The notes below the pieces were generated by a model. The model did no database searches. It had not been told where the DNA came from and was given only the letters and a program-made list of their open reading frames with translations. DNA of 64,000 nt from NCBI GenBank assembly GCA_019054805.1, contig JAHQIY010000008.1, forward strand, positions 605,501-669,500, read 5' to 3'. The translations under genes were made by a program, and so were the position numbers. Numbering within the stretch: position 1 is the first letter of the stretch; each line of letters starts with the position of its first letter. This document shows positions 13,805 through 61,863 of this stretch, in pieces. This stretch comes from Brachionus manjavacas (taxonomy: Eukaryota; Rotifera; Eurotatoria; Ploima; Brachionidae).

Positions 13805-14575
13805 TATTTTTTTTATTTATGTATCTAATTTTAGTATCTAATTTGTTTTTATTGTATCAAATAAAATCTTAATTAGTATCTAATTATTTTTTTTAGTATC
13901 AAAAAATAATTCAATTTAATATCTAATTGACAAATATAATCAAGCTCGCAAAATCTGGATGACTACTATTCATTTAGAATGGTCTCAAAGTGAATGCACA
14001 TGCCCATATTGGAGAAAAAAAATATTTGCAAACACATTTTGGTTCTTGCTTGTCGTTATCGAGGATTGGAATGGCATAGAAACGCAAAAGATGTTCCTTT
14101 GGGTGAAAATAGGAAACGCGGTAAACCAGTAACAACAAAAAAAGCTTTAATGATTCAACCAACCGAGTTACAAGTAAGAGATTTCGTGCGAAATCAAAAG
14201 AAATTACCAGAGGCTCTTGTAAATTCAATTTTGAGTCAAGTTGATGTAATGGAAGAAATTGAGGCTCAAGAAGCAGAAATGGAAATTCAAAATGAAGTTG
14301 AAGTTGAAAAAAATTTTAATGAAAATTCAGCTCAGTCTGAGATTCCAAAAAAGAAAAGAGGAAAACCCACTGGATCAAAAAACAAGCCGAAATCAATTCA
14401 AGATCAACCTCAAAACAAAAGAACAAAAAAGATTAATTTTTTTCTTTTTCTTTATTTTTCTTCCTTTTTGTAATAGATACAACAAAAAAAAATATTTATT
14501 CACTATATTTAGATAGCTTATTATTGAGATACAATAAAAAAAGAATTAGATACAATGAAAAAATAACAGTCTTAA
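13805..14575 (+). mobile_element. MULE remnant framed by GTATCTAATT repeats
   Basis: The left flank (13819-13930) carries at least four copies of GTATCTAATT. The right flank (14470-14570) carries the inverse word ATTAGATACAA or close variants. Between them lies the C-terminal part of a MULE transposase (13950-14440, described separately). Reiterated short words inside both ends, in opposite orientation, are what I would expect of transposase binding sites in subterminal regions. Exact termini and a target duplication were not resolved. The transposase core is absent, so the copy is non-autonomous. Confidence 0.5.
13950..14440 (+). pseudogene. MULE transposase C-terminus: SWIM finger and AT-hook tail
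   Basis: The reading begins A-R-K-I-W-M-T-T-I and shows a SWIM zinc finger: C-x-C-P-x-W with cysteines coded at 13995 and 14001, then I-C-K-H-I-L with Cys at 14027. The two halves lie in different frames, separated by a run of A at 14014-14022, so a one-base slip broke the finger. Downstream come a VPLGENRKRGKP segment, an acidic linker rich in Glu, and a terminal KKKRGKPTGSKNK AT-hook-like tail near 14350-14390. SWIM fingers characterise MULE/MuDR transposase C-termini. The DDE domain is missing here. Confidence 0.65.
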
Positions 14576-30960: not shown

Positions 30961-31169
30961 AAAATAGTTCTAGATCAATACGCTTATCCAACAACAACCG
31001 CTAATCTTTATATTTACTTATGTTTTTTATTTTATTTTTGATTTTTAGAAACAGATTTTAACAATTTTTGATCCTATTAAATAATCAAAAATTTAGTCCC
31101 AATTGCAAAAATTAAGGGCTCAGCTCAGTAATAAAATTTCTCCGAAATTCTCAATTTTTATATTTTATG

Positions 31170-31315
31170 CAAAAGAGAAAAAAATGGAAGCGTTAAGTCA
31201 GGTATACATAAAGTTTGTCAATATTAGTAAAACAATTCCATTTAATTCTCATCTTAGCACCTGAAGAAACGATTTTTGGTCGAATTTACTGTTTTAATTC
31301 ATCAGACATCAAACG
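31170..31315 (+). repeat. Left arm of ~125-bp inverted repeat flanking the LRAT gene
   Basis: From GAGAAAAA (about 31174) to GACATCAA (about 31312) this is identical, apart from one A-run, to the reverse complement of 33287-33427. Inside is a gene-like start: ATG GAA GCG TTA AGT CAG, followed directly by GTATAC and, 62 bases later, CATCTTAG and an open exon (H-L-K-K-R-F-L-V-E-F). The arm therefore seems to be the 5' end of some gene with its first intron. The open frame ends soon after the repeat stops matching. Confidence 0.65.
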
Positions 31316-31845
31316 ATTTGCTTTTTTTTTAATTATTTATTTAAAAATAAAAATTCGGATTTATTTTAGGATTTACGAATTCTATTATATTCTATATTTT
31401 TTGGATTGTGAGATGTGTTTAAAAGTCCTCTTTAAATTAAAAATTAAATTTAATGCGTCATGAAAGCTAAATATTTTTACGAAAGATATAAATGTTGTCT
31501 TTTATATTTAATCCAGCAAACACATTGAATACAGTTAATAAATAAGAAAAGCGATTTTTCAATTTATCTAAGTGATAAAAACTGTTAAGTTAATATTATC
31601 TATTCAAAAGGTTTTTTATCACTTTTTCTAAAAAAAATAGGCTCTAGCTATAAAATTATCTTAGACTTAAATGAAATTAATCAATCTTCAGATAATTTAA
31701 ACTTAAGGAAAAAATTATTTGATGAAAAACAATAATGGGTTTTTATCCCAAACTTTAAGAATAATAATTTTAATTGAAAAATTAAAACTTTTATTTTTAA
31801 AAGTCTAGATTATCTTGCAAGTATTAAGAATACTACATCAAAAAA

Positions 31846-32643
31846 ATGGATGATACAGAATTTTCGAGAATTTTGTCAAATTCTCTTCCAATTAATGTAA
31901 TCAAGAAAATATCTGATACAACTATTATGGGTCAGAAATATGTGATTGTTGTGAATAAAATTTTGTGGTACAAAATAAGAGTTTTTTTGAAAGAAGATCA
32001 CTTGGATAAAAGACAAAAATTAACTGAGTACCATTGGTCGCAGCATTTAACAGAAGAAAGTGTTGAAAATCACATCAAATGGATAAAAGAACGTCTCAAA
32101 AGAACTCCTTTGCTTTATTTTGAACAATTCGATCATTTGCGCCAAAATCTAAATTATTATTTTTCTTACATTAAAATTGACGATGAATGTAAACTAAATC
32201 CAGACAAATATTTTAATCCAGGTGATCACTTGGCTATAACACGAAAAGGTGGTATTTATACCCATGACTGTATTTATATGGGCAATAAGAAAGTTGTTCA
32301 CATTTTTGGTGAAGACATTTCTTTGTCCAAAACTTATGCAAAAGCCAAAGAAGATTCTTGGGAAAATTATATTGGAATTGACAACAATGGGAGTGTTCCA
32401 TTTTGGGGAACTGTTTTTGTAGTCGTTTATAGACTAAGAATTAAGAAGCCAGATGATATTGTAAAAGCAGCCAAAGAACTTTCTGCTAAAGAATATGCAA
32501 AAGGCCAATTCAATTTTGTCTTAAAAAATTGTCAACACTTTGCAGCAAAATGCTGCATCGGTATAGAATTTTCACTTGGAACATTGGGTCTTTTTAACAA
32601 AATGCTAATTAGTCATCCTTTTTCTCCATTGGAAGTCAATTAA
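31846..32643 (+). CDS. LRAT-domain protein, single exon
   Basis: An intact 265-codon gene with no introns. The N-terminal ~115 residues are unlike anything I recognise (charged, helical). Residues about 122-240 form an LRAT/H-rev107-type domain: F-N-P-G-D-H-L-A-I, G-I-Y-T-H-D-C-I-Y-M-G with His140, V-V-H-I-F-G with His152, and N-F-V-L-K-N-C-Q-H-F-A with Cys229. The family's catalytic machinery is a His and a Cys, the latter within the N-C-x-H-F box, so an active thiol acyltransferase or phospholipase is plausible. Members act on phospholipids or retinol. There is no membrane helix at the C-terminus, unlike PLAAT-type enzymes. AATAAA lies at 32696. The gene is bracketed by an inverted repeat. 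Confidence 0.8.
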   Translation: MDDTEFSRILSNSLPINVIKKISDTTIMGQKYVIVVNKILWYKIRVFLKEDHLDKRQKLTEYHWSQHLTEESVENHIKWIKERLKRTPLLYFEQFDHLRQNLNYYFSYIKIDDECKLNPDKYFNPGDHLAITRKGGIYTHDCIYMGNKKVVHIFGEDISLSKTYAKAKEDSWENYIGIDNNGSVPFWGTVFVVVYRLRIKKPDDIVKAAKELSAKEYAKGQFNFVLKNCQHFAAKCCIGIEFSLGTLGLFNKMLISHPFSPLEVN

Positions 32644-32649
32644 CACTAT

Positions 32650-33280
32650 ACTAAAGCATGTTTAAATTTAAAATTTTATTACGTAAATATTACGAAATAA
32701 ATAAAATTGAAAGAAAATTAATAAATGGCTTATTTTTTTTTAAATCTATTTAGTTTTTTTCTTTATTTTTTTACAATGTAAAAATTAAGAATGTTTAAAT
32801 TTTGGATGTTAGGTACAAAGACAAATTTGTTATTAGCCTGAACGACTTGAAAGCTTCTCCAAGATTCGCGTTGTAAATTCATGTTTTGCGAGTCAAGTAA
32901 AGTTAAAAAAATGTTTTTTTGGATTTTTTTCTAATATTTTGAACCTATGAATATTTAATTTTAATAAATTAAGTGTTTTTAAACTGTAAAACTCTAAGGA
33001 TTTTCAAGTTAATGAAAATTCCTTTTTCATTGAATTCGAAAAATATGATTAAATAAATAAAAAAAAATCAAAAGTAAAAATAAATGCTAGAATCTTTTTT
33101 ATTAAAAGCCAGAATCTTATTTCACGGTTATTATATTGAGTAAAAATAATAAACGTATTTAATGAATCTGAATATTAATTTCTTTTTCTTTTAAAATTTA
33201 AAAATTGCAGAGGGGTAGAATTTTTTCCCCAAAAAGCGCTCCCTAATTTTGTTATTATTTAGATTTTTTTAAAGTAAAGC
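32650..33280. other. 3' flank of the LRAT gene
   Basis: AT-rich. Contains the polyadenylation signal at 32696-32701. No other feature recognised. Confidence 0.4.
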
Positions 33281-33284
33281 AATT

Positions 33285-33430
33285 CATTGATGTCTGATGA
33301 ATTAAAACAGTAAATTCGACCAAAAATCGTTTCTTCAGGTGCTAAGATGAGAATTAAATGGAATTGTTTTACTAATATTGACAAACTTTATGTATACCTG
33401 ACTTAACGCTTCCATTTTTTCTCTATTTCA
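33285..33430 (-). repeat. Right arm of the inverted repeat flanking the LRAT gene
   Basis: Reverse-complement copy of 31174-31312. It carries the same ATG-exon/GTATAC...CTTAG/exon arrangement on the minus strand. Beyond the repeat the two copies diverge at once, and the frame on this side ends within about 15 codons. No target duplication flanks the outer ends. Confidence 0.65.
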
Positions 33431-33544
33431 TCTAATGTAAAAATTTAGATTTTCGATTTTAGTAATTTTAAAGTGCAAGGTAGCATGAATACAAATTCTT
33501 TTAGAAAATAATATTTTAAGTAAAAGACAGACATTTTTATGTTA

Positions 33545-34640: not shown

Positions 34641-34929
34641 AATAAAATAAGAAAAAAAATAGTATTAGTTATTTTAAAATTTTGAATTTGCTTTGACGGT
34701 ACAATAGTTGAAGATAACAGCTTGATTATTACCTCTAAATCGGTTATTAGGATTAACAAAGAAAATTATTGTTTGATTGATTGATTTCAATTTGCACGAA
34801 ATGTGTCTTGATTGCAAAGTTTGGGCTAGAAAAGCAAACTTTCAAATTATTGCTTATCTATTTAAGGAACAAAAATTGATTCCAAATTTATTCAATCAAT
34901 CAGTTCAAATTTAAATAATAAAGATAAAA

Positions 34930-35607
34930 ATGTATTATTACGACAACACAAGCAATCAACCATACCATCAGGCTGAATATCCTTTGGTCACCCCAAACTT
35001 TACTGAATCATTCATTCCTCAAAATGTTAACGGTTCTAGTTATGATTACAGCATTTATTACAATCATGAATACCAATACCAATATGATGGTGAGTATGCC
35101 TTTTTAAAGCCTTGTCAAAATTCACAGTCGAGCTACATCAAAAACTGGACATTTATGGACAATTCTTCTCTCCATTCAAGCTACACTCTTGATTCAACAG
35201 GTAACAGTTTAAATAATAGTAAAATTAATTCTTCTTTTTCTCCAGATAAATATGTCACCACCGAGGTAAGTAATCAAAAGCTAAACTTTTCTAGATGTCA
35301 TAAAAGTAGGAAGCAGTTATTACCAGATGATGCAGTTGACATAATGAATGATTGGTTCCAGGGTCATATTCATAATCCGTATCCAACTATGGAAGAAAAA
35401 GAAAAATTGGCCAGACAAGGAAAAATTACGGTGAAGCAAGTAAATGCATGGTTCAGCAATCGTCGCAATCGAAGCCAAAACACAAAGCCAAAGAGAATTA
35501 AAAGAGCAATCGAACAAGAAATGAATGAAATGATCAATCAACTTTCTTACAATTCAAATAAGACCGAAATAATAGAGAAGTTTCGGCGATCATTTATGTC
35601 AAACTAA
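34930..35607 (+). CDS. TALE-class homeobox transcription factor
   Basis: An intact 225-codon single-exon gene. The N-terminal half is rich in Tyr, Asn, Ser and Gln. The homeodomain occupies residues ~124-186 and carries the three-residue loop extension typical of TALE proteins (G-H-I-H-N-P-Y-P-T, with N-P-Y-P at 149-152). The recognition helix is T-V-K-Q-V-N-A-W-F-S-N-R-R-N-R, with Asn51 and Arg53 kept and Ser at homeodomain position 50, which is unusual for PBX (Gly), MEIS (Ile) or IRX (Ala). There is no MEIS or PBC domain. It may belong to the expanded lineage-specific TALE genes of spiralians (SPILE-like), an inference without alignment. A short basic helix follows. AATAAA is at 35672. Confidence 0.85.
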   Translation: MYYYDNTSNQPYHQAEYPLVTPNFTESFIPQNVNGSSYDYSIYYNHEYQYQYDGEYAFLKPCQNSQSSYIKNWTFMDNSSLHSSYTLDSTGNSLNNSKINSSFSPDKYVTTEVSNQKLNFSRCHKSRKQLLPDDAVDIMNDWFQGHIHNPYPTMEEKEKLARQGKITVKQVNAWFSNRRNRSQNTKPKRIKRAIEQEMNEMINQLSYNSNKTEIIEKFRRSFMSN

Positions 35608-37349: not shown

Positions 37350-38110
37350 GTAATTCAATTTTAATATTCATTTATTCCTTAAGGATGATTTCAGTCATTA
37401 TATAAAAAAAGAAACCCTAAATGAGTTAAGGTATAAAACAAATATCTAAAATATTCACTTGTGTTCAAAAAATAAAATTCACATATTCAAAATTTGGAAT
37501 TTTGGAGTTTATGATCATGATCATATGATGATCAAACTTGATAGTTTAAAATCTTAATTAAAATGATGCAAGCTTATTTAAAATATTTTTTTATTTAAAC
37601 ACTGAATGTTTATTATCTTAATTTAATAAAAAAAATTCCAAATTGATTTTTAATTTATTTTTATAAAATATTAATTTGAAAATTTTAAAGACATTAAAGC
37701 ATCCAAATTATGGTTTTAAATGATATTTTAATATTAAGTAAAATACCAACAGCGAAACAAAGTTTGAGGCACCAAAATTCGTGCCTAATTTTCAACTACG
37801 GTCAAAGCATTTTTTCCAGTCATTGCTTAACATGATCGAGAGATTTTTTTTGCAATCAATGAATGTGAAAACTTTTTAACTAAAATTGCAAGAAAATCTT
37901 GAAATATGGCAAATCTATATTCTTTAAACAACCCACTAGTATAAAAATGTTTACAAATAAAGCCTGATATAGCAAATTTTAAAGAAAAAAATTAAAAGTC
38001 CGCACTTGAACTTTAATTTGGGACTTCAGAATTTTAAAAAATTAATGCTCTATCAGCTATCCACTTGACTTTTTTCATTTTCAAAATGCATTTATATACT
38101 TTTTAATTCA
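37350..38110. other. AT-rich spacer
   Basis: Contains a TGATCATGATCATATGATGATCA palindromic patch at about 37511-37533 with no evident role. No gene. Confidence 0.35.
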
Positions 38111-38112
38111 TA

Positions 38113-39198
38113 CCGTAATTCCGTGTTGGGGAACGCGTGCATTAATACCCAAAGTCATATGTGAAGTGCATGCACAGACATTAACCCCTTCCATGTTAAA
38201 AAATACTATTAAAGGTTCGGCGCACTACATGTGCAACTTTGGGTATTAATGTGTGATACTAATAAAAAAACCAAGTTTAAATGTCGAGTTAATAATCAAA
38301 AAATCTTTTTTAGAGCATCATCTTTATTTGAAATTTTCTGAAATATTAAAAAATTAATTTTTTATATTTCAACTTTTAGTGCGACCATTCAAACAAAATT
38401 ATGAAAATGTTTTTTAATATTAAAAATTATTTTTTTTATGCTTTTCTAGTTATAGATGCAGCTTTTTTAAAATAATATAAAAATTAAAATATTAAAATAA
38501 TATGACAAAGTCTTGAATTAATTATACGAGCGGCGTTTAAAGACAAAATTAAAATGAAAAAAAAATACTATTTGAAAATCTTATTTTGATGATTTGTTTT
38601 GTTGAGCCCTTTTTCCTACCAAGAGGCTTTCGAACACTCCCATCTTTGTTTAAAACTAAAACTGGAGTAATATCAACTCTATTCAAGTTTAAACTTTGAA
38701 GAGGTCGACGCATAACTTCCTCATTCTGGTTTGAAATTGTAATGTTTGAACAATTTGTTTCTTTTTGTACTGGATTATTATTTTCATCATTGAACAATGG
38801 TGAAAAAAGAAAAAAAATATCGTATGATTTTTTAAATCTTTAAAAAAAAGCTGCATCTATAAATAGAAAAGCATAAAAAAATAATTTTTAATATTAAAAA
38901 ACATTTTCATAATTTTGTTTGAATGGTCGCACTAAAAGTTGAAATATAAAAAATTATTTTTTTAATATTTCAGAAAATTTCAAATAAAAATGATGCTCTA
39001 AAAAAGATTTTTTGATTATTAACTCGACATTTAAACTTGGTTTTTTTATTAGTATCACACATTAATACCCAAAGTTGCACATGTAGTGCGCCGAACCTTT
39101 AATAGTATTTTTTAACATGGAAGGGGTTAATGTCTGTGCATGCACTTCACATATGACTTTGGGTATTAATGCACGCGTTCCCCAACACGGAATTACGG
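38113..39198. mobile_element. 1.1-kb element with ~360-bp terminal inverted repeats
   Basis: The outer ends read CCGTAATTCCGTGTTGGGGA and its exact complement, flanked on both sides by TA (38111-38112, 39199-39200). The two arms (38113-38470 and 38840-39198) are almost identical for about 360 bp. Within each arm lies a smaller palindrome bounded by ATTAATACCCAAAGT and ACTTTGGGTATTAAT (about 110 bp apart). The ~370-bp centre carries a short minus-strand gene (38549-38797). TA flanks fit a Tc1/mariner-type insertion, while long TIRs are common in MULEs. No 8-9 bp duplication is visible, so the superfamily is open. Confidence 0.7.
38549..38797 (-). CDS. Short AT-hook-like protein inside the long-TIR element
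   Basis: 82 codons, intact as read. Polar N-terminus (Asn, Gln, Glu), then P-L-Q-S-L-N-L-N-R-V and near the C-terminus D-G-S-V-R-K-P-L-G-R-K-K-G-S-T-K, an AT-hook-like basic motif. It compares well with the tails at 14360, 20615 and 25150. It could be the last piece of a transposase left in a non-autonomous element, or a small DNA-binding protein in its own right. The final hydrophobic residues probably read past the original end. Confidence 0.4.
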   Translation of the reverse strand: MFNDENNNPVQKETNCSNITISNQNEEVMRRPLQSLNLNRVDITPVLVLNKDGSVRKPLGRKKGSTKQIIKIRFSNSIFFSF

Positions 39199-39199
39199 T

Positions 39200-39915
39200 A
39201 TTTTATTCAAGATAAGAGAAATTTTTGTAAATTTTTTTTGTGCTGAAAAGTTTTTTAAAAAATTATTGAAATTGTATTGATAAGACTTTTAATTCTGGGG
39301 AATAGGAAGACTCACTTAGGGCTTACGAAAAATGGTAATTATGGGTTAATAATTATTAGACAAATATTTTTAGCATGAACGTTTTAAAATAACTCTTGAT
39401 GAATTATTATATATTTTTAAAATTTATTTTTAAAGCTTTTAGTTGACTAGAAGTCGATTAATTGAAAATTAGTCGAGTTTGGTCGAGACTAGGGTTGTGA
39501 ATCGACTAAGCGTTAATCGATTAAATCGGTTAAATTTACATTCGATGAAATTTTAACTTTATCGAAAATGTCTTATTTTTATCGATCAAAAAATCATTGT
39601 TAGAATTTTAATTTACTTAATTTGATAAATTTTACAAAAATCTATGGAACAAATTTTGGACAATAGTATCCCTTTGTTTTCGAATAGTTAGTCGAATAGT
39701 TAAATCGATTAAATTGTTCGATTTTATAAATCAAATTCAAAAGTGCAAAAAAAAATGTATTCGATATTTTTAAAAGATAATTAATTTATGAAACCAAACA
39801 AAACTTGAAAAATCATTTTAAAAAATTATTAAATAAGTTACGAAATTAAATAAAAATTAAAAAATTGTTTAAAAATTTTTAAAATTATTTTTTGTTTTCT
39901 AAAACGATTGAATTA
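39200..39915. other. Spacer with TCGATTAA-rich repeat patch
   Basis: At 39440-39730 there are many TCGATTAA, CGACTAA and AGTCGA words around GACTAGGGTTGTGAATCGAC. This looks like the end of a DNA transposon with iterated subterminal motifs (hAT-like ends often read TAGGGTTG...), but only one end is recognisable. Confidence 0.3.
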
Positions 39916-40144: not shown

Positions 40145-40365
40145 TAATAAAATGAAGTTTTTCAACTTTCATTTTTTTAGCCTATTTACTCTATTTTGAT
40201 TCTTTTTTTTTTATCTAATTTTATTAACTTTAATTTTATTTTAATTTAATTTTTTTATTTTATTTTGAACTCAGTAAAAAATAAAATAAAAACCTCCTTC
40301 AGAATAATATTCTGAAGGAGCTTTAGCTGGGTACAGAAAACAAATAAATAAATAATAATAAACTT
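40145..40365 (+). repeat. Solo LINE 3' end, same family as 23252-24347
   Basis: About 190 bp (TTTTTCAACTTTCATTTTTT through TCTGAAGGAGCTTTAGCTGG and an AAATAAATAAATA tail) match the reverse complement of 23255-23390 nearly base for base, including the T-rich body. Only the 3' UTR is present. It contains its own hairpin AGGAGCT...; a preceding CTCCTTCAGAATA/TATTCTGAAGGAG palindrome at 40293-40320 sharpens the family signature. Confidence 0.65.
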
Positions 40366-40432
40366 CATTTCATTTCATCAAATCAAAATCTCTAGTTCTG
40401 CGAGTATTCTCGAAAATAATTTCAACGATACA

Positions 40433-41145
40433 GTGAATAACGCTGAAGAATTCCCAAAAACCAAACGAAGCAAAGCTAAAGCCTACGATTTTGTTGAAGA
40501 CTGTGAATCTTTGGAAGAATTAAAAAAATTGATCAAAAATTTACATTTCGACAACGTATCATGGAACTTTCATAGCACAAATAAATTAGCCGATTGCGAT
40601 AAGCATACATTCGATTGTAAATTTCAAAAGAAAGGTTGCAAAAAATCAATTTATTTGAAAATTAAAAACGATGAGATTAATGGATCATTTTATATTTCCT
40701 ACAATGAACATTCAAATCATTCAAACGACGAAACTGTGACTTCAGTGGCCCCACAAGTAAAAGAAAAAATTTTATATTTTCGTTCACTCGGACAAGCAAA
40801 AAAAGAAATCAAGCGAAGTTTAATAAAAGAAAATATTCAACCACCTACGGACAATCAAATTAAACATGTAATCAATTCAGTGAAAAAAGACAAATGATTT
40901 CGTCGATTTTCAGTATAATAAAAGTTAAATACAATGAAAACAGTTGGACCATGAGTAGCTGCAATTGCTGGTATTGGTTGAAAAATTATAAATGTTATCA
41001 TATAACTACATTTGCCGCACGTAAAAAAGTGTAGTTTCGACTCAGTTGGGATGGATTTACCGATACAAGCTAATAGAAAAAGAGGACCAAAAGGTACAGC
41101 TGGAGCCCTAATAGAATTTTTAGTTTTTTGAACCTCTAGATTCAA
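40433..41145 (+). pseudogene. Internally deleted MULE transposase: zinc ribbon joined to SWIM finger
   Basis: The first 154 codons (40433-40897) hold a basic leader and a WRKY/GCM1-like zinc ribbon: C-D-K-H-T-F-D-C, G-C-K-K-S, then N-E-H-S-N-H. The usual linker follows (V-K-E-K-I-L-Y-F, D-N-Q-I-K-H-V-I). After a stop comes S-C-N-C-W-Y-W-L-K-N-Y-K-C-Y-H-I at 40957-41001, a complete SWIM finger (C-x-C...C-x-H in one frame), then after a shift A-N-R-K-R-G-P-K-G-T at about 41070-41100. The DDE domain between ribbon and SWIM is absent. Together with 24510 and 20255 this is a third N+C fusion. Confidence 0.6.
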
Positions 41146-53959: not shown

Positions 53960-54703
53960 TTACAACTCGTCTAAATCTTCTTCTGGAAAATCGCCCACCT
54001 CAATATTTTCTGGCTTGACAAATCCACCATAATTAAGTGCACACTCAAAATATCTTTTTCCATCTACGGAGCCATCATTTTTACCCAAAGGTTCATCATA
54101 TTTTACACCAACAAAATATCCAGGTTTTCCACTAAGCTCGCCAGTGTACATCACTGTTCCGAGTCTGGTCGGATGTCCGGCCACTGATACTTTGCACCTT
54201 GATCCAACGGCCATGGCATCAATTAATTTTTTTTCGTTTTCAAGCTTTTCTCTGGCTTGCTTTTCTTTCTGAGCTAGTACCTCTGAATGTTGGTTCGAGT
54301 ATTGACCGAGCTTCATTTTCTGTTTGAATTCTTTGACTGTGCCTCTTTTTTTGGCATATTCCTCTTCGGTTAGTTCAAATTTTTTAACTGTTGGGTCAAT
54401 TTCACCAATGGGTACTCCCATGACTGTGTTCGAGCCTTTGACTTCTATGAAATAGCCATCTTCACATGGATAGTAGCCCAGCATGCGATCATCATCGTTC
54501 ATTTCACAAATGAATTCCTTTTGTTTATTCAAAAGGCGCAGAGTCATTCCAGCGGCGACAAAGCCGGTCATCATTTCAAGTTTGTTTTTTAGATCGACAA
54601 TTTTGATGTCTTTGGGATATCGCTTTTCTACGCCAAACTCTCTTCCTTCCGACACAGTGGTCAAGTTTACAAAGCTCTGAGTGATAACTTGATATTCGGT
54701 CAT
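53960..54703 (-). CDS. TBCB: Tubulin-binding cofactor B
   Basis: Intronless, 247 codons, full family length. Residues ~5-95 are the ubiquitin-like domain (I-V-D-L-K-N-K-L-E-M-M-T-G, then L-G-Y-Y-P-C-E-D-G-Y). Residues ~110-165 are a helical linker (L-T-E-E-E-Y-A-K-K-R-G-T-V). Residues ~166-235 are the CAP-Gly domain with G-T-V-M-Y-T-G-E, P-G-Y-F-V-G-V-K-Y-D-E-P-L-G-K-N-D-G-S and G-K-R-Y-F-E-C. The protein ends in acidic E-E-D-L-D-E-L, matching the family's D-E-(I/L/M) tail that contacts TBCE. TBCB captures alpha-tubulin from the CCT chaperonin and, with TBCE, helps fold or recycle it. It carries no transposon insertions and its codons look ordinary. Confidence 0.95.
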   Translation of the reverse strand: MTEYQVITQSFVNLTTVSEGREFGVEKRYPKDIKIVDLKNKLEMMTGFVAAGMTLRLLNKQKEFICEMNDDDRMLGYYPCEDGYFIEVKGSNTVMGVPIGEIDPTVKKFELTEEEYAKKRGTVKEFKQKMKLGQYSNQHSEVLAQKEKQAREKLENEKKLIDAMAVGSRCKVSVAGHPTRLGTVMYTGELSGKPGYFVGVKYDEPLGKNDGSVDGKRYFECALNYGGFVKPENIEVGDFPEEDLDEL

Positions 54704-54704
54704 T

Positions 54705-55185
54705 TTTTTTTATGAAGAATTTTTTTTTATGAATTTTTTGATCCTGTATTGAGTTGAATTTTATTTTTTTAATTTCAATTTTATTATTCAGAAAAATGTA
54801 AATATCACAAAGCATATTTTTATTCAGATTAAAGCTGTTTTTTTTCCGTATTTTTGAATCAGGTCAGTGAATGTTGCTATGCTACAGTCTTCGGGTTTAG
54901 CTATGAAAATTTTTTTTTTTAACTTAAGAGAATAAACTATGAAATTTTATAAAATAAGAAGGTAAATTTTTAATTTTTTTTTTCAATAAAAAACAACTGT
55001 ATTTTAAAACTAAGTTAATTTTGTTCAGAAGGAATCAAAAAAATAAAACACAAATAAATTCTTTAATGATAAAAACGATTAAGTAAATTAATTCTTAAAT
55101 TTACATCTTTAGAATAATTTTGTTTTATTTATGATCTTCACTTTTTATAATCGTTACAAAAATTGTGATTTTTTAGTGAAATCTT
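54705..55185. other. Upstream region of TBCB
   Basis: AT-rich. Should hold the TBCB promoter (minus strand). Nothing else recognised. Confidence 0.35.
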
Positions 55186-55719
55186 TTTCAGCTATTTACA
55201 GACACTTTCAAAAATGTAATATTTACAATAATTTTCTTTTTTAGTTAAGCCGTAATCTTGCATGTGTTTCGATTTAGCTAAATGAAACCAACGGTCTAAA
55301 ATTATACGATCTGGAAAATTAAGCTCTAAAACATTAATAATAGCTAATTCAAAATCACAACTAAATGATTTCTGATCTTTTAGAAAAGTCTTTAGCATTT
55401 TAAATACAGTCGAGTCTTGTTATAACCATGCTGATTAATACGATACTCGCTTTATAACGATATTTTTTTTCATAATTTACAATCCACAATATTATTACAT
55501 GTTAAATTTATTTGTTAATACGATGTTTCTTTAATACGATATCTTATTAATACGATAGGTTTATTCAGAAAAAAACAAACAAATCAGTGCTAATTCATCG
55601 TTTTTAAAACGATATTGATCTTTTAAACAAAAAAACTTGAAATTTCGAATGATTTTAATAAAAATAATCTCACTGTCACAGAACTTGTAAAAAAATATAA
55701 TAGACCTCAGAGTACTGTT

Positions 55720-56760
55720 TCTTCTTTTCATAAGGCAGAGAATCAGGAAATGATAAAAAACTTATATGAAAATAATTTAATCAATCCTAGCCCTAAAAGA
55801 ATGAGAGGTTCTAATTATGTCAAAATTGAAGAGGCCCTTGATCACTGGTTAAAATCAGTTTTGTCATTTAAAAATATTACTCTTAACGGTTCATTGATTC
55901 AAGTCCAGGCTATTAAATATGCAACTATGATAAATCAAACTGATTTTAAAGCTAGCAATGGATGGTTAAACGGATTTAAAAAAGGCATTATGATTTTCTG
56001 TAAATTAATTTTTCAAAAATCAATTAATTTAAAAAAAAAAAACGTCAATAAATAAGTCGTCAATTAAAAAAACAAAAGTCCATTAATTTTTATTTTATCA
56101 ATTAAAATTTTATTTATCAATAAAAAAAAAGTTTAATCAGATTAAAAAAAACAGCATTTATTAGAGAAAAATTTAACAAAAAATTAATTGAGCATTAAAG
56201 CACTTGGCCTATTATTTTTTTATTTATTTGTGGTTTATTTTTTTTGGTCATCCGACAGGTCTTGTTTTTCTTAAAGGAACGTCTATAGCTTAGTCTGGAT
56301 AATCCTCAAACTCGATTATATCTGAAACTAGGTTCATTTTAGATTTTTTTTAGATTTTTGAGTGTTGAAAAAAAAGGTTTTAATATAATTCAAAATGAGA
56401 TTAAAAGTTCCATGTAAATTTTATTTACATTAATATTATTTTTATTGATTCCATAATATAATTAATTGACAATAATTTATTAAATTGACATAAGAATATT
56501 CTATTGACAAATCTTCAATTTTATGTATTTCTTTTATTTAAAATTGACTCTTGTTTAATTAATTGATTTTTGAACTATTTTATTGATTTTTGTTTTTTTA
56601 ATGGACATTCAAATTATCAATTGATTTTTATTTATTTTAATTGACGTTTTGAATAAAATATTAATTGATTTTTGTAAAATTAATTGACAGAAAAACATAG
56701 AGCCTTTAAAAAAAGGCATAATATTACCTTTAAAACTATTGCATTGATAAACTACGATTG
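55720..56760 (+). pseudogene. CENP-B-like DNA-binding domain of the Tigger transposase, split
   Basis: Segment 1 (to 55988) contains the tandem helix-turn-helix domains that bind pogo/Tigger ends. Segment 2 (from 56705) resumes at F-K-K-R-H-N-I, the expected continuation after G-W-L-N-G-F-K-K. The word TTTAAAAAA(A)GGCAT sits at both break points (55975-55988 and 56705-56719), marking the insertion of the nested element. Nothing of the catalytic D-D-D domain is readable after 56760. Confidence 0.65.
55989..56704 (-). mobile_element. 716-bp AT-hook element nested in the Tigger copy
   Basis: The left end TCTGTAAATTAATTTTTCAA and the reverse complement of the right end TCTGTCAATTAATTTTACAA match and stay alike through AAATCAATTAAT and AACGTCAAT. 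ATTAATTGAC/GTCAATTAAT words recur inside both ends. The target word TTTAAAAAA(A)GGCAT is duplicated outside (14-15 bp, longer than the usual 9 bp of MULEs). The centre (56235-56335, minus) reads I-I-E-F-E-D-Y-P-D, a stop, then P-L-R-K-T-R-P-V-G, stop, P-K-K, a decayed AT-hook tail. No transposase remains. Confidence 0.65.
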
Positions 56761-57319: not shown

Positions 57320-57611
57320 CATCTCATAGAAAACAATATTCATAGAATGTAAACTCATAGAAGACAAAAATCATTGAATGATGTTTTAATAGAAAAAAAT
57401 TCTCATAGAATTAAACTCGTAGTATTTTTTTCATAGAATATTTCTCTTTTATGATTTTCTCACTTCAAATTTATATTGCAAACACTTGAAATTGAAAAAT
57501 GAATTTGAAATCACCAATTGTTAATAGGCTTAGTTCAAACAAAAGCTATAATGTTAGTAACTTAGCAACATCTAAGTTAAAAATAAAATAAAAGAATACG
57601 GTAGTAGGCGA
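57320..57611 (+). repeat. Left end of the FLYWCH MULE: TCATAGAAT subterminal repeats
   Basis: Eight or so variants of TCATAGAA occur between 57322 and 57445, then an ATG at 57499 opens a reading (M-N-L-K-S-P-I-V-N-R) that ends K-N-T-V-V-G at the insertion point. If the 2.94 kb element and one target copy are excised, the frame runs on into D-F-Q-S-V-V-E-Q at 60560. One stop already lies upstream of the junction. The matching right end was not found; that side is lost after 61863. Confidence 0.5.
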
Positions 57612-57829
57612 GGAGATAGTCAAAATTGTCATAAAAAAAAAAGTCATAAAAAAAAAAAAGCAAAATTGTCATAAGAAAATTGTCATGTGTTGTCATTTGT
57701 CATATATGACAAAATAAACAAGGAAAAATGAAAAAACAAATGATTGGTTGATTGTTAGAATTTTTTATTTAAAAAAGAATTTTAGAAAAAGAATTTAAAT
57801 CAATGACAAAACAGTTTTAATTGTTTATT

Positions 57830-58690
57830 CTAAATCAATACAAAGTTTAGAAAATTTTGGGGAATAATTTTGAACAGAATAATGAGTAAACAAAAAAAAA
57901 AAGTACATTTTATTATAGTATTAAACTCATCTCTGATTTTTGTTTGATCAAAGACTAATTTACCAGGATCTAGATTCATAGCTAAAGATAATGCATATCC
58001 AAGGGCAAATAAGCCACAGTCTTTGTTACCTTTTTGTTTTGTAACATTGACATGGACAACGTCAAAAAATCTAGAGCCACCCGAGAATCTTTTTAAGACC
58101 GTTTTAATAAGATTGAGATAGTGTTTAGGGTTATTAAGACTATCATAAATGAACCAATTATTAAAACTGTCAGGATCTTCGTATGAAGGATGCAAATTAG
58201 CCAAAACAATCCAGTGGTTTTCAGCATGTAAAACTTGAATAAAAACTGACTCGTGTATTGTTTCAGGATTAAAAGGTGCATTTTTGAGAGTATAATAATC
58301 AGGCCTGAATAATCCTTGGACATCATATTTCTTGTAAATCAAATTCTGGAACTCAGTAATATGAAAATTGGTCAACTCTTGATTTTTTTCTAGTTTTAAA
58401 AATTGTAAAGAAATAGGCACTCTCTCGTAATTAGTATATGAGCGGACTTCCAAGAATTGAACTTCAGATGAATCTTCTAATTTTTGTCTCTTCTTGCACG
58501 GCTCTGATACTAATATTGGCTCTGTTTTGACTAAACGTTCACTTGAAAAATTGATAAGAGCGTCGAATAGATCTTGACGAACCGGTTGATTATTAAGAAC
58601 AAATGTTTTGTAAATGTGAATCTGACTCTTAAGTATTGTGAAGAGTTCTTTTGAAAATAATTCACTTGCTTGTTCATTATTTGGTTGATC
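57830..58690 (-). pseudogene. Ulp1/C48-type cysteine protease domain of the MULE
   Basis: Open from about 58690 to 57830 on the minus strand. After a charged linker (K-K-R-Q-K-L-E-D-S-S) the domain shows the C48 catalytic layout: A-E-N-H-W-I-V-L-A-N with His coded at 58214-58216, W-F-I-Y-D-S-L-N-N with Asp at 58143-58145, and V-T-K-Q-K-G-N-K-D-C-G-L-F-A with oxyanion Gln and Cys at 58016-58018. All four residues are present, so this part looks functional. Ulp1 proteases cleave SUMO or related modifiers from proteins. The last ~25 residues after I-I-K are hydrophobic and follow an A-run, probably out of the true frame. It is joined to the transposase by a one-base slip near 58690. Confidence 0.8.
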
Positions 58691-60221
58691 TAGCTTTGAT
58701 TGTTAGATTCACAAAATCGATTGTTTTTAAAAAATCTAAGTTTTTTAGAGGGTTATCGAAAGCGATCTTCCTTTTTCTCTTTTTACCAACTTTCTCGACA
58801 TTCAGTTCTTCTTCATCTTGGTCAAATTTCATCAGACTTGTACCATATGGTTCCATAATGTGTGCAGATAATTTGTCAAAATATTGTTCAAATGTGAGAA
58901 TCAGCTTACTGAATTGTTCCTGTAATGTAACAAAAACTTGATCTTTTTTTTTGTTTTTTGATAATTGCTTTGGCTCTGCGATTGGATTACGCTCGTTTGC
59001 ATGGAATTCGCTGTGAACTTGAGACGCCGACTTTTTGATCATATTGATAAATGTTAACACATTATTTGATTTTGATGATGGAATTGACGATAATTTTGAA
59101 TGATAACCTTCGAGGTGGTTATTTGTTCGTGGACCATTGTTGTCGAAATGATTCCATGAAAATCAATACTTGCCTTGTAACCAAGTATTGACAAAATACT
59201 TAATAAATTTTAATATATCACTGTCAAGAATAACTGGAACTGTGCTCAAAATAATGTTCCAGCCAGTTTGGACATCATTGAGTGGGACAAGTGCTAATGC
59301 GCTAAATTTTCGTATCCATTATTTAAAATTGTAATCGTTGTAATAAAGTGCTTGTTTATTACATTTATTGAATAGATAACGTATAATGGCTTGATTAAAG
59401 TGAAACCAACATCCATAAATTTTTACATTTTCGAATTCGACGCTGATTGCTTGAATCATGTCTAGCTCGAAATCAGAAAGCGTTTCTTGTAAAACGATTG
59501 AACAATTATTACGAGTGAAAATTTCTTTAAGGTTAGATAAAGCTTCGACATAAGTCTCACGCTCTTTGTTCTGTAAAAGAATATAACATGCTGGGTACAT
59601 TTGGTTCTGATAATAACCATGAACGGAGAAAATTTGGAGAAAATGAGTTGGGCACGTTTTGAAAGTCCCGTCAAAATGCCATCTTACTGAATTACACAAT
59701 ATTTTCATTCCAATAGGAGACATGAAGATCAATATTCGATTTTTATTGTCTTTGTTATCAAATTGTAAAAATTGTTCGCAGTTAATGGTTGAGTATATTT
59801 CGTTGATTTGTATATCTTTTGTTTGTTTTGGATTGTTTGGTTTAGTCTGGTTCCTGTGATATCTCAAATTTGACTTAACAGTGGTGAATGGTTTCCAATA
59901 TTCGGCTATTTCATTATATGAATATTTCTCGGTTAGTTTTTGGTACTGACGGTTGTATGCATCCATGAGAGGAACGTCATGATCTTTTATGACATTTTGG
60001 ATAAGTTGCTTGAAAAACATAATGCAATCAATTTCACAGTTGGATAAAGGTGTATGGTAATGTTCTACATTATTTCTTTTTCTTGCCTCTAAGTTATAAA
60101 GTGCACTGCATTTTCTATTGACGCATCTGTACCAACTTGATTTTTTCGTTTTTTGATAACGGTGCTTTTCGAAAATAATTTGTTTGTATTCGGTGTCAAG
60201 ATATAATATTTCTTGTTCCAT
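58677..60221 (-). pseudogene. MULE transposase with zinc-finger N-terminus
   Basis: One frame from ATG 60221 to 58677 with two stops (TAA at 59319, TGA near 59170). The N-terminus has a FLYWCH/GCM1-like ribbon (S-W-Y-R-C-V-N-R-K-C-S-A...E-H-Y-H). The catalytic region reads W-H-F-D-G-T-F-K-T-C (first Asp), T-L-S-D-F-E-L-D-M (second Asp), and I-Y-G-C-W-F-H-F-N-Q-A (C-x-x-H). Between the stops and beyond comes G-P-R-T-N-N-H-L-E-G-Y-H-S-K-L, the R-T-N-N-x-x-E-x-x-H motif with the third acidic residue. The end is a Lys-rich, coiled segment (K-K-R-K-R-K) that leads into the protease. No SWIM finger was seen; the protease occupies that place. Confidence 0.8.
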
Positions 60222-60553
60222 TTTTTGATTTTAAGATTTTGATTAACAGTATGAGTAGATAAGTTATTTATTTTCATTTTCAATTTATATTTATATGACT
60301 CAACGACTTTTTAAATTAATTAATTAAAATTTTTCTTCTAATTGTTTCATTTTTATCTTAGCTTCTTTTAATATTCTTCTTATTTAATTCAAAGATAAAT
60401 TTTCTTTGAAATTAATCGCCAATCAGATTTGACATTCAATTTATTTTTTAATTGGTTTGACAATTTTACGATGACTATTTTGTTTTTTTTTCCTATGACA
60501 ATTTTTTATGACAATTTTGCACTGCACTGATACTGACAATTTTGACCCTAACC

Positions 60554-61863
60554 GTAGGCGATTTTCAATCAGTCGTCGAACAACTTTGTTTTAAAGAACC
60601 TGTAGAAACTTGTGATTTTTTAAACAATTTTGATTTTGACGATGATGACTTGTATAATTATGAAACATCATTTATTAAAGTTCAAGTTCAAGACAGTCTA
60701 GCTGACCAAATAAATAATTTAATTTGAATAGCGAGTTTGATTCTAATGAAGAAGCTTGGTACTTGTATGGTACTGGTACACAACGTAAAGGTTATAAATT
60801 GTATTCTTTTGGTTGTCGTTATACTGGCAAAAAACCGAAAATGTGTGAAGTAGAAATGGCTGAAACTGTTTATTGGCGTTGTGAAAAATATCCTAATTGT
60901 AAAGGACGTGGTACATCTCAAAGATTATTACCACTCTTTAAAGTAACACAATGTCATAATCATGAATTTAAACTAGAACTTAAAGAAGAGTTAAAAGCAA
61001 TAAATGAGTTAAAAGTGAATGCTATTCAATCCAATGATCAACCGAGGGTTTTAATTCAAAAATTACAAAGTAAAATGAGTGATCAGTGCATTGTTTCATT
61101 GCCAAAAAAAGAATCGATTCGTAGACTTATAATTCAAGAAACACTAATACTGGTCCAGGTTATAATGCACAAAGTCTAGCAGAACTAGACATTCCCGGAA
61201 GTTTACAAACCACTGAGAAAGGGAAAAGTTTTATTACGGTAACAGTGGTAAAAGCGACAAAAATCGTGTGATTTTTTTTCCTACCGATGAAAATTTAAAA
61301 CTATAGAGTACAAACAATGATTTGTATATGGATGGTACATTTGACATAGCACCGGCCATCTTTAAGCAAGTGTACACAATTCACATACTTTTCCGTGGGA
61401 CAACATTGCCAATGTTGTATGCACTTTTGCCTAACAAAAAACCGACAACGTACAAAAAGTTATTTCGTATGATTGACAATTTAATTTCTAAACGGCCCAA
61501 GTCTGTCAATTGTGACTTTGAACTAGCTGCTATCAATGCGGCAAAGTTAGTATTTGGTTGTGATATATATGGATGTTATTTTCATCTTTCACAGTCGTTT
61601 TCGAAACGAATTCAACAAGGAGGTTTAAAAAGTTGGTACAAAGACGAGAAGTTAAGACTTACTTTCAGAAAACTCAAGCGTTAGCATTTGTTAAAGAAGA
61701 AGATGTAAGAGCTTGTTTTCAATTGATCAAAGATGAAGCTCCTGATTCAGCCAAAAGTTTTCTTACTTATATTGAGAATAACTATATCGGTAGTGAATCA
61801 AAGAAGCCAAGATTTCAAATTGATTTTAAATTGACCCGGTTTAGGGAACAGGGGCTTATGTGA
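60554..61863 (+). pseudogene. FLYWCH-finger MULE transposase, truncated
   Basis: Plus-strand readings in three frames. An acidic leader (D-F-D-D-D-D-L-Y-N-Y) is followed, after a shift at 60722, by a FLYWCH-type finger: Y-W-R-C-E-K-Y-P-N-C-K-G-R and Q-C-H-N-H-E-F. Two more breaks (61160, 61260) lead to D-G-T-F-D-I-A-P at 61332 with the first catalytic Asp, N-C-D-F-E-L-A-A with the second, and Y-G-C-Y-F-H-L-S-Q-S. Another shift near 61680 precedes S-F-L-T-Y-I-E-N-N-Y-I-G. The protein stops at 61860 before the R-T-N-N-E motif and C-terminus, so the right third of the element is missing. Its left end is at 57320. Confidence 0.7.

What the first reader, a model, noticed from the sequence alone, without database searches (positions are those of the whole stretch)
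57612..60553. MULE transposon whose transposase is followed by a complete Ulp1-type protease
Seen: TIRs, iterated AATTGTCATAA subterminal words, an exact 8-bp target duplication (GTAGGCGA), and a single minus-strand gene order of zinc finger, DDE transposase with R-T-N-N-x-x-E motif, Lys-rich linker, and C48 protease with His, Asp, Gln and Cys all present. Known: in plants, the Kaonashi MULEs carry ULP-like protease genes. I know of no well-described animal counterpart with this order. Inference: the two halves were one polyprotein separated now only by a one-base slip, and the protease may remove SUMO-like modifiers from the transposase or host factors. The protease takes the place usually held by the SWIM finger.
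Basis: partly seen in the sequence, partly recalled or inferred. Interest (0 to 1): 0.85.

Follow-up and report, generated by a model that had tools for sequence, protein, structure and literature searches.

The report
Decayed MULE transposon with Ulp1 protease
This is a broken copy of a jumping gene whose transposase gene is followed by a SUMO-protease-like gene; the pairing is real, but the same kind of pairing has already been reported in transposons of animals and plants.

Summary
The element is real. At 57612-60553, with imperfect inverted ends and an exact 8-bp duplication (GTAGGCGA), lies a minus-strand MULE transposase (PF10551, E 7.6e-13) followed by a Peptidase_C48/Ulp1 domain (PF02902, 22.7 bits, cut-off 20.7). 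The protease frame's only ATG is codon 242, so it was probably read together with the transposase; whether a base was lost or an intron joins the parts cannot be settled from one copy. No second copy was found in what could be searched. The claim that no animal counterpart is known fails: Bao et al. 2010 (PMC2836005) list Ulp1 domains in Mutator transposons of hydra and lancelet besides plants, and in Ginger1 transposases. It is not a Kaonashi element, which lacks TIRs and carries ULP in reverse orientation. Most likely the protease trims SUMO-like modifiers from transposase or host factors, an idea already close to print. New member of a known kind; modest interest.

The parts
57604..57611 (.). 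target site duplication, left copy, GTAGGCGA
   Evidence: exact 8-bp match to 60554-60561
57612..57711 (+). left terminal and subterminal region: GGAGATAGTCAAAATTGTCA... with iterated AAATTGTCA(T) words
   Evidence: alignment with the reverse complement of the right end and word counts; inverted arms 57621-57685 and 60458-60519, 62.6 bits
57830..58702 (-). open frame of 290 codons with Peptidase_C48 (Ulp1) domain; His 58214-58216, Asp (by motif) 58142-58144, Gln 58034-58036, Cys 58016-58018; only ATG at codon 242
   Evidence: PF02902 E 1e-4, 22.7 bits over cut-off 20.7, residues 158-261; positions; non-significant SENP5 alignment with His-Trp and Gln-x5-Cys in register, Asp not
58680..58702 (-). 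stretch open in both frames where the change from transposase to protease frame must have happened, if by a single indel
   Evidence: three-frame translation of the junction; transposase-frame stop at 58677-58679
58680..59162 (-). C-terminal transposase piece with G-P-R-T-N-N-H-L-E and a Lys/Arg-rich KKRKRK stretch; no Cys
   Evidence: translation; no significant Pfam hit of its own
59163..59321 (-). transposase segment bounded by two in-frame nonsense codons, TGA 59163-59165 and TAA 59319-59321
59322..60230 (-). N-terminal transposase piece: C-x4-C-x15-H-x-H zinc-finger-like motif and MULE DDE domain (D at 59670-59672 and D at 59472-59474)
   Evidence: PF10551 E 7.6e-13, residues 184-280; alignment to the neighbouring MULE; motif
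60454..60553 (-). right terminal and subterminal region: GGTTAGGGTCAAAATTGTCAG... (read on the minus strand)
60554..60561 (.). target site duplication, right copy, GTAGGCGA

Best explanation
A degenerate, once autonomous MULE (Mutator superfamily) DNA transposon. Its minus-strand gene encoded a zinc-finger-like N terminus, a DDE transposase and a C-terminal Ulp1-type cysteine protease, most likely read as one unit (fused frame or joined by an intron). The transposase bound the iterated terminal words, cut the element out and inserted it with an 8-bp duplication upstream of or within an older, oppositely oriented MULE. The protease most likely removed SUMO or another ubiquitin-like tag from the transposase itself or from host repair or silencing factors near the element, helping transposition. 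The copy here is dead: two nonsense codons plus a frame change. Shown: element boundaries, both domains, His/Gln/Cys and the DDE motifs, and the lesions. Inferred: the catalytic Asp, the fusion, DNA binding, and everything about the protease's substrate. Confidence is about 0.9 for identity and about 0.4 for the de-SUMOylation step.
For: TSD and inverted ends; PF10551 and PF02902 hits; His-Trp, Tyr-Asp-Ser and Gln-x5-Cys motifs present, with His, Gln and Cys in register with SENP5 (E 0.16); protease frame open for 290 codons whose only ATG is at 242; the neighbouring MULE transposase is 31% identical with both D motifs shared; published precedent for Ulp1 in Mutator elements of hydra, lancelet and plants, and at the C terminus of Ginger1 transposases.
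Against: Only one copy was seen, so the protease could be peculiar to it. Pfam support for C48 is only 2 bits above cut-off. No PDB hit is significant, and an unrelated chain (MioC, E 0.052) outranks SENP5 (E 0.16); SENP5's Asp aligns with Asp176, not Asp187. Single-sequence AlphaFold gave no usable model (pLDDT 37.5). 56 GT-AG pairs would also join the frames, so a plain fused frame is not established. No evidence bears on the protease's activity or substrate.
Confidence: 0.65

Rival explanations
1. Chance capture (Pack-MULE type transduplication): this copy picked up a host or other-transposon Ulp1 gene fragment that is not part of the family and has no role in transposition.
For: MULEs capture gene fragments, and ULP capture is discussed as transduplication in plants (PMC2528002, passages). 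No second copy with the protease could be shown. tblastn of the protease finds only itself in the window.
Against: Same strand, abutting the transposase frame with a 23-nt overlap of open frames; long open frame with its motifs kept while the transposase has two nonsense codons; repeated occurrence of Ulp1 domains in animal and plant Mutators in print.
Confidence: 0.2
2. Two separate genes in one element: a transposase gene and an independent downstream protease gene.
For: The frames differ now; some MULEs carry a second ORF (PMC6446971, passages).
Against: The protease frame's only ATG is at residue 242, beyond the catalytic motifs, and the ATG overlapping the transposase stop is in the third frame.
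Confidence: 0.1
3. The frame change is natural: an intron (for example 58786 to 58690, 97 nt, donor TTG|GTAAAA, acceptor GCTAG|ATC) or programmed frameshifting joins the two parts, and only the two nonsense codons are lesions.
For: In-frame GT-AG pairs exist (56 candidates), one of 97 nt with a fair donor; Ginger1-Ulp1 families of hydra have 0-4 introns (PMC2836005 table).
Against: 56 candidates show that such pairs are cheap in this sequence; no slippery site was seen at the overlap (by eye); one random indel is at least as simple in a copy that is already broken.
Confidence: 0.25

Closest known systems
Mutator (MuDR) transposons with Ulp1 domain in hydra and lancelet (Repbase Reports cited in PMC2836005)
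   Same: MULE-type transposon with an Ulp1 domain in an animal
   Different: Their sequences, TIRs and domain order were not available here, so order and relatedness could not be compared; the original reports were not seen
Kaonashi (KI) MULEs of Arabidopsis
   Same: MULE carrying a ULP-type cysteine protease
   Different: KI is a non-TIR MULE with ULP in reverse orientation to mudrA (PMC2528002); here there are inverted ends and the same orientation
ULP1-containing MULEs of melon, rice and grapevine
   Same: direct orientation reported in melon and rice, TIR-MULEs with ULP in melon, and a symbol for same-orientation ULP1 in the grapevine figure legend
   Different: plant hosts; many plant MULE groups have a SWIM finger (PMC6446971 table), absent here
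Ginger1 transposons of Hydra
   Same: transposase with C-terminal Ulp1 domain, the same overall logic
   Different: Gypsy-integrase-type transposase with CCGG/CCGT TSD, unlike the MULE domain and 8-bp GTAGGCGA TSD here
Phantom MULEs of invertebrates (group 20 of PMC6446971)
   Same: animal hosts, 8-10 bp TSD, FLYWCH in some
   Different: no Ulp1 listed in the table; phylogenetic placement not tested

Membership tests
MULE / Mutator superfamily | MULE transposase domain (PF10551) | tested here: met
   E 7.6e-13, 49.2 bits over 27.6
MULE / Mutator superfamily | TSD of 8-11 bp | tested here: met
   exact 8 bp; range from PMC6446971
MULE / Mutator superfamily | terminal inverted repeats | tested here: met
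   imperfect, about 20 nt terminal plus subterminal repeats
MULE / Mutator superfamily | zinc finger of a known type (FLYWCH, SWIM, CCHC) | tested here: inconclusive
   C-x4-C-x15-H-x-H motif but no Pfam zinc-finger hit at E up to 1; alignment to the neighbour's FLYWCH no better than shuffles; no SWIM, as there is no Cys in 58680-59162
Peptidase C48 / Ulp1 | PF02902 domain | tested here: met
   22.7 bits over cut-off 20.7
Peptidase C48 / Ulp1 | catalytic His and Gln-x5-Cys | tested here: met
   H163, Q223, C229, in register with SENP5
Peptidase C48 / Ulp1 | catalytic Asp | tested here: inconclusive
   D187 in a Y-D-S motif, but the SENP5 alignment puts its Asp opposite D176
Peptidase C48 / Ulp1 | de-SUMOylating or related isopeptidase activity | not testable with these tools
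   needs biochemistry
Kaonashi MULE | non-TIR element with ULP in reverse orientation | tested here: not met
   inverted ends present, same orientation (definition)
Ginger1 | CCGG/CCGT-specific TSD and Gypsy-integrase-like transposase | tested here: not met
   TSD GTAGGCGA; transposase pieces hit MULE and no integrase family at E up to 1
Phantom | placement in the Phantom clade of the transposase tree | not tested
   no reference transposases were held
Hydra/lancelet Mutator-Ulp1 families | sequence homology of transposase and protease | not testable with these tools
   Repbase sequences not held

The most novel reading that the evidence does not exclude
A MULE lineage not yet described in this host group in which transposase and Ulp1 protease are one polypeptide, the protease replacing the SWIM finger as a fixed functional domain that de-modifies the transposase at the transposition site.
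Probability: 0.25. Interest if true: 0.5.

Novelty: new member of a known kind. Interest (0 to 1): 0.25.

Why it matters
Ulp1/OTU-type proteases recur beside unrelated transposition enzymes (MULE, CACTA, Ginger, Crypton, NeSL/Utopia), which hints that SUMO or ubiquitin control is a general hurdle for transposons. A further MULE case adds one data point; on its own, from one broken copy, it does not settle the function.

Tried and rejected
Relatives: the search for related loci with the protease and with the N-terminal transposase in viral contigs and genome contigs, and with a two-row MULE alignment in viral contigs, gave no confirmed relative: 0 of 4, 6, 31, 6 and 55 pattern stretches. tblastn of the protease against phages gave no match at E up to 0.01. 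A 16-base TIR pattern in viral-contig hit 25 stretches, of which 0 of 25 held a match to the element's four protein pieces at E up to 0.1: chance. Structure: AlphaFold without an alignment gave pLDDT 37.5, so no fold search was made. NCBIfam: 0 hits for 3 of 3 proteins. Rfam: 0 matches in the window at gathering score. tRNA scan: 0.

FLYWCH: local alignment of the first 120 residues with the neighbouring MULE's FLYWCH region scored 26, reached by 260 of 300 shuffles, so homology of that finger is not shown.

Termination-reinitiation was considered and rejected: the ATG overlapping the transposase stop lies in neither the transposase nor the protease frame.

Literature: 9 searches. Seen as passages: PMC2836005 (with the Discussion in full), PMC6446971 (with abstract), PMC2528002, PMC3212892, PMC13359780, PMC6555955, PMC4640811; all others only as search listings. 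Hoen 2006, van Leeuwen 2007 and the Repbase Reports were not seen; they are cited through those papers. In the main texts of PMC6446971 ('ulp' 0 occurrences) and PMC13359780 ('ulp1', 'protease' and 'peptidase' 0 occurrences) the protease is not mentioned, which tempers how well known the animal cases are. MEROPS could not be searched.

Full report
What is there. The window is AT-rich (G+C 26.7%). At 57612-60553 lies a 2942-bp element bounded by an exact 8-bp repeat, GTAGGCGA. Drawing pairs of sites 2.5-3.5 kb apart at random gave an exact 8-bp match in 53 of 200000 draws. The ends read GGAGATAGTCAAAATTGTCAT and, on the other strand, GGTTAGGGTCAAAATTGTCAG, and are followed by iterated AAATTGTCA words, 3 on the left and 4 on the right in inverted orientation, out of 13 in the window on both strands. 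Among the 13 inverted pairs with arms less than 10 kb apart found in the window at E up to 0.01, this pair ranks fifth by score (62.6 bits); one of the other 12 is a second register of the same ends. Three of the 13 have an exact 8-bp word repeated in their flanks; only here does it contain G or C.

Coding content. On the minus strand, 59322-60230 holds a MULE transposase domain (PF10551, E 7.6e-13) and 57833-58702 a Peptidase_C48 domain (PF02902, E 1e-4, 22.7 bits against a curated 20.7). The transposase shows D-G-T-F, D-F-E and, in a later piece, R-T-N-N-x-x-E. The protease frame has His163-Trp, Tyr-Asp187-Ser and Gln223-x5-Cys229. A non-significant alignment to SENP5 (E 0.16, outranked by the unrelated MioC at 0.052) puts His, Gln and Cys in register but sets SENP5's Asp opposite Asp176, not Asp187; the Asp is therefore assigned by motif only. 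The piece with R-T-N-N has no cysteine, so there is no SWIM finger. The N terminus has a C-x4-C-x15-H-x-H pattern without a Pfam zinc-finger hit.

Damage. The transposase frame has two nonsense codons, TAA 59319-59321 and TGA 59163-59165, besides the frame change within 58680-58702 where both frames are open. The copy cannot make an intact transposase as it stands.

One unit or two. The protease frame is open for 290 codons (chance about 3e-11 at this composition) yet its only ATG is at residue 242, past the catalytic motifs. That argues that it was translated together with the transposase. Whether the frames were continuous and later shifted, or were joined by splicing, is open: 56 GT-AG pairs of 30-399 nt with donors at 58681-58960 would restore the frame. 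One copy cannot decide it.

Surroundings. The element sits at the 5' side of an older, opposite-strand MULE at about 60600-61860 (FLYWCH-like 23.0 bits, just under its cut-off of 23.6; MULE domain 29.7 bits over 27.6), 31% identical in the shared transposase columns. To the left lie minus-strand frames resembling MULE fragments (weak tblastn, E 0.012 and 0.22; no Pfam hit at E up to 0.01) and a Tc5-type transposase DNA-binding frame (PF03221, E 1.1e-11). No other copy of the element or of the protease was found in the window.

Relatives. The genome is not held. Scans of viral and prokaryotic collections found none, as expected for a eukaryotic element, so absence there says little. The host was not identified; an AT-rich animal such as a monogonont rotifer would fit from memory, but this was not tested.

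What is known. Bao, Kapitonov and Jurka 2010 (authors recalled; [quoted passage not shown] a figure legend describes an alignment of Ulp1 domains of Ginger1 and Mutator transposases; and they suggest a role in transposition through ubiquitin/SUMO control of repair. Kaonashi elements are non-TIR and carry ULP in reverse orientation; melon and rice have both orientations (PMC2528002). C48 proteases also occur with Cryptons of oomycetes (PMC3212892) and Ulp1-like proteases with nematode NeSL/Utopia retrotransposons (PMC4640811); an OTU domain is listed for MuDR-6_HM of hydra (PMC6446971). The central novelty claim therefore fails, although the main texts of two surveys of MULEs do not mention the protease.

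Mechanism. Best supported: a standard MULE cut-and-paste cycle. The protease's role is inferred: removal of SUMO-like tags from transposase or from repair or silencing proteins. Chance capture is the main rival and cannot be excluded with one copy.

Verdict. Observation largely sound, interpretation half right, novelty low: a new member of a known kind.

Noticed in passing
31143-31332 and 33268-33455, enclosing 31828-32643 (+): 190-nt inverted repeats, 92.6% alike, flank an LRAT-domain open frame (PF04970, E 4.4e-11); no clear target duplication was found. Possibly a mobile element carrying an LRAT-like gene.
   Followed up: partly
38110-38483 and 38829-39201: 374-nt inverted arms, 97.6% alike, 346 nt apart: a foldback-like or palindromic structure without a clear target duplication.
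   Followed up: partly
60600-61860 (+): An older, decayed FLYWCH-like MULE in opposite orientation into or next to which the element inserted.
   Followed up: partly
55627-56052 (+): Tc5-type transposase DNA-binding frame (PF03221) lying between minus-strand MULE-like fragments.
   Followed up: no
53963-54709 (-): Intact frame with Ubiquitin_2 and CAP-Gly domains, like tubulin-folding cofactor B (the name is recalled).
   Followed up: no
34915-35604 (+): Homeobox_KN homeodomain frame.
   Followed up: no
13994-14470 (+) and 40352-40894 (+): Frames that look by eye like the C-terminal SWIM part and the N-terminal part of other MULEs; Pfam gives no hit at E up to 0.01.
   Followed up: no
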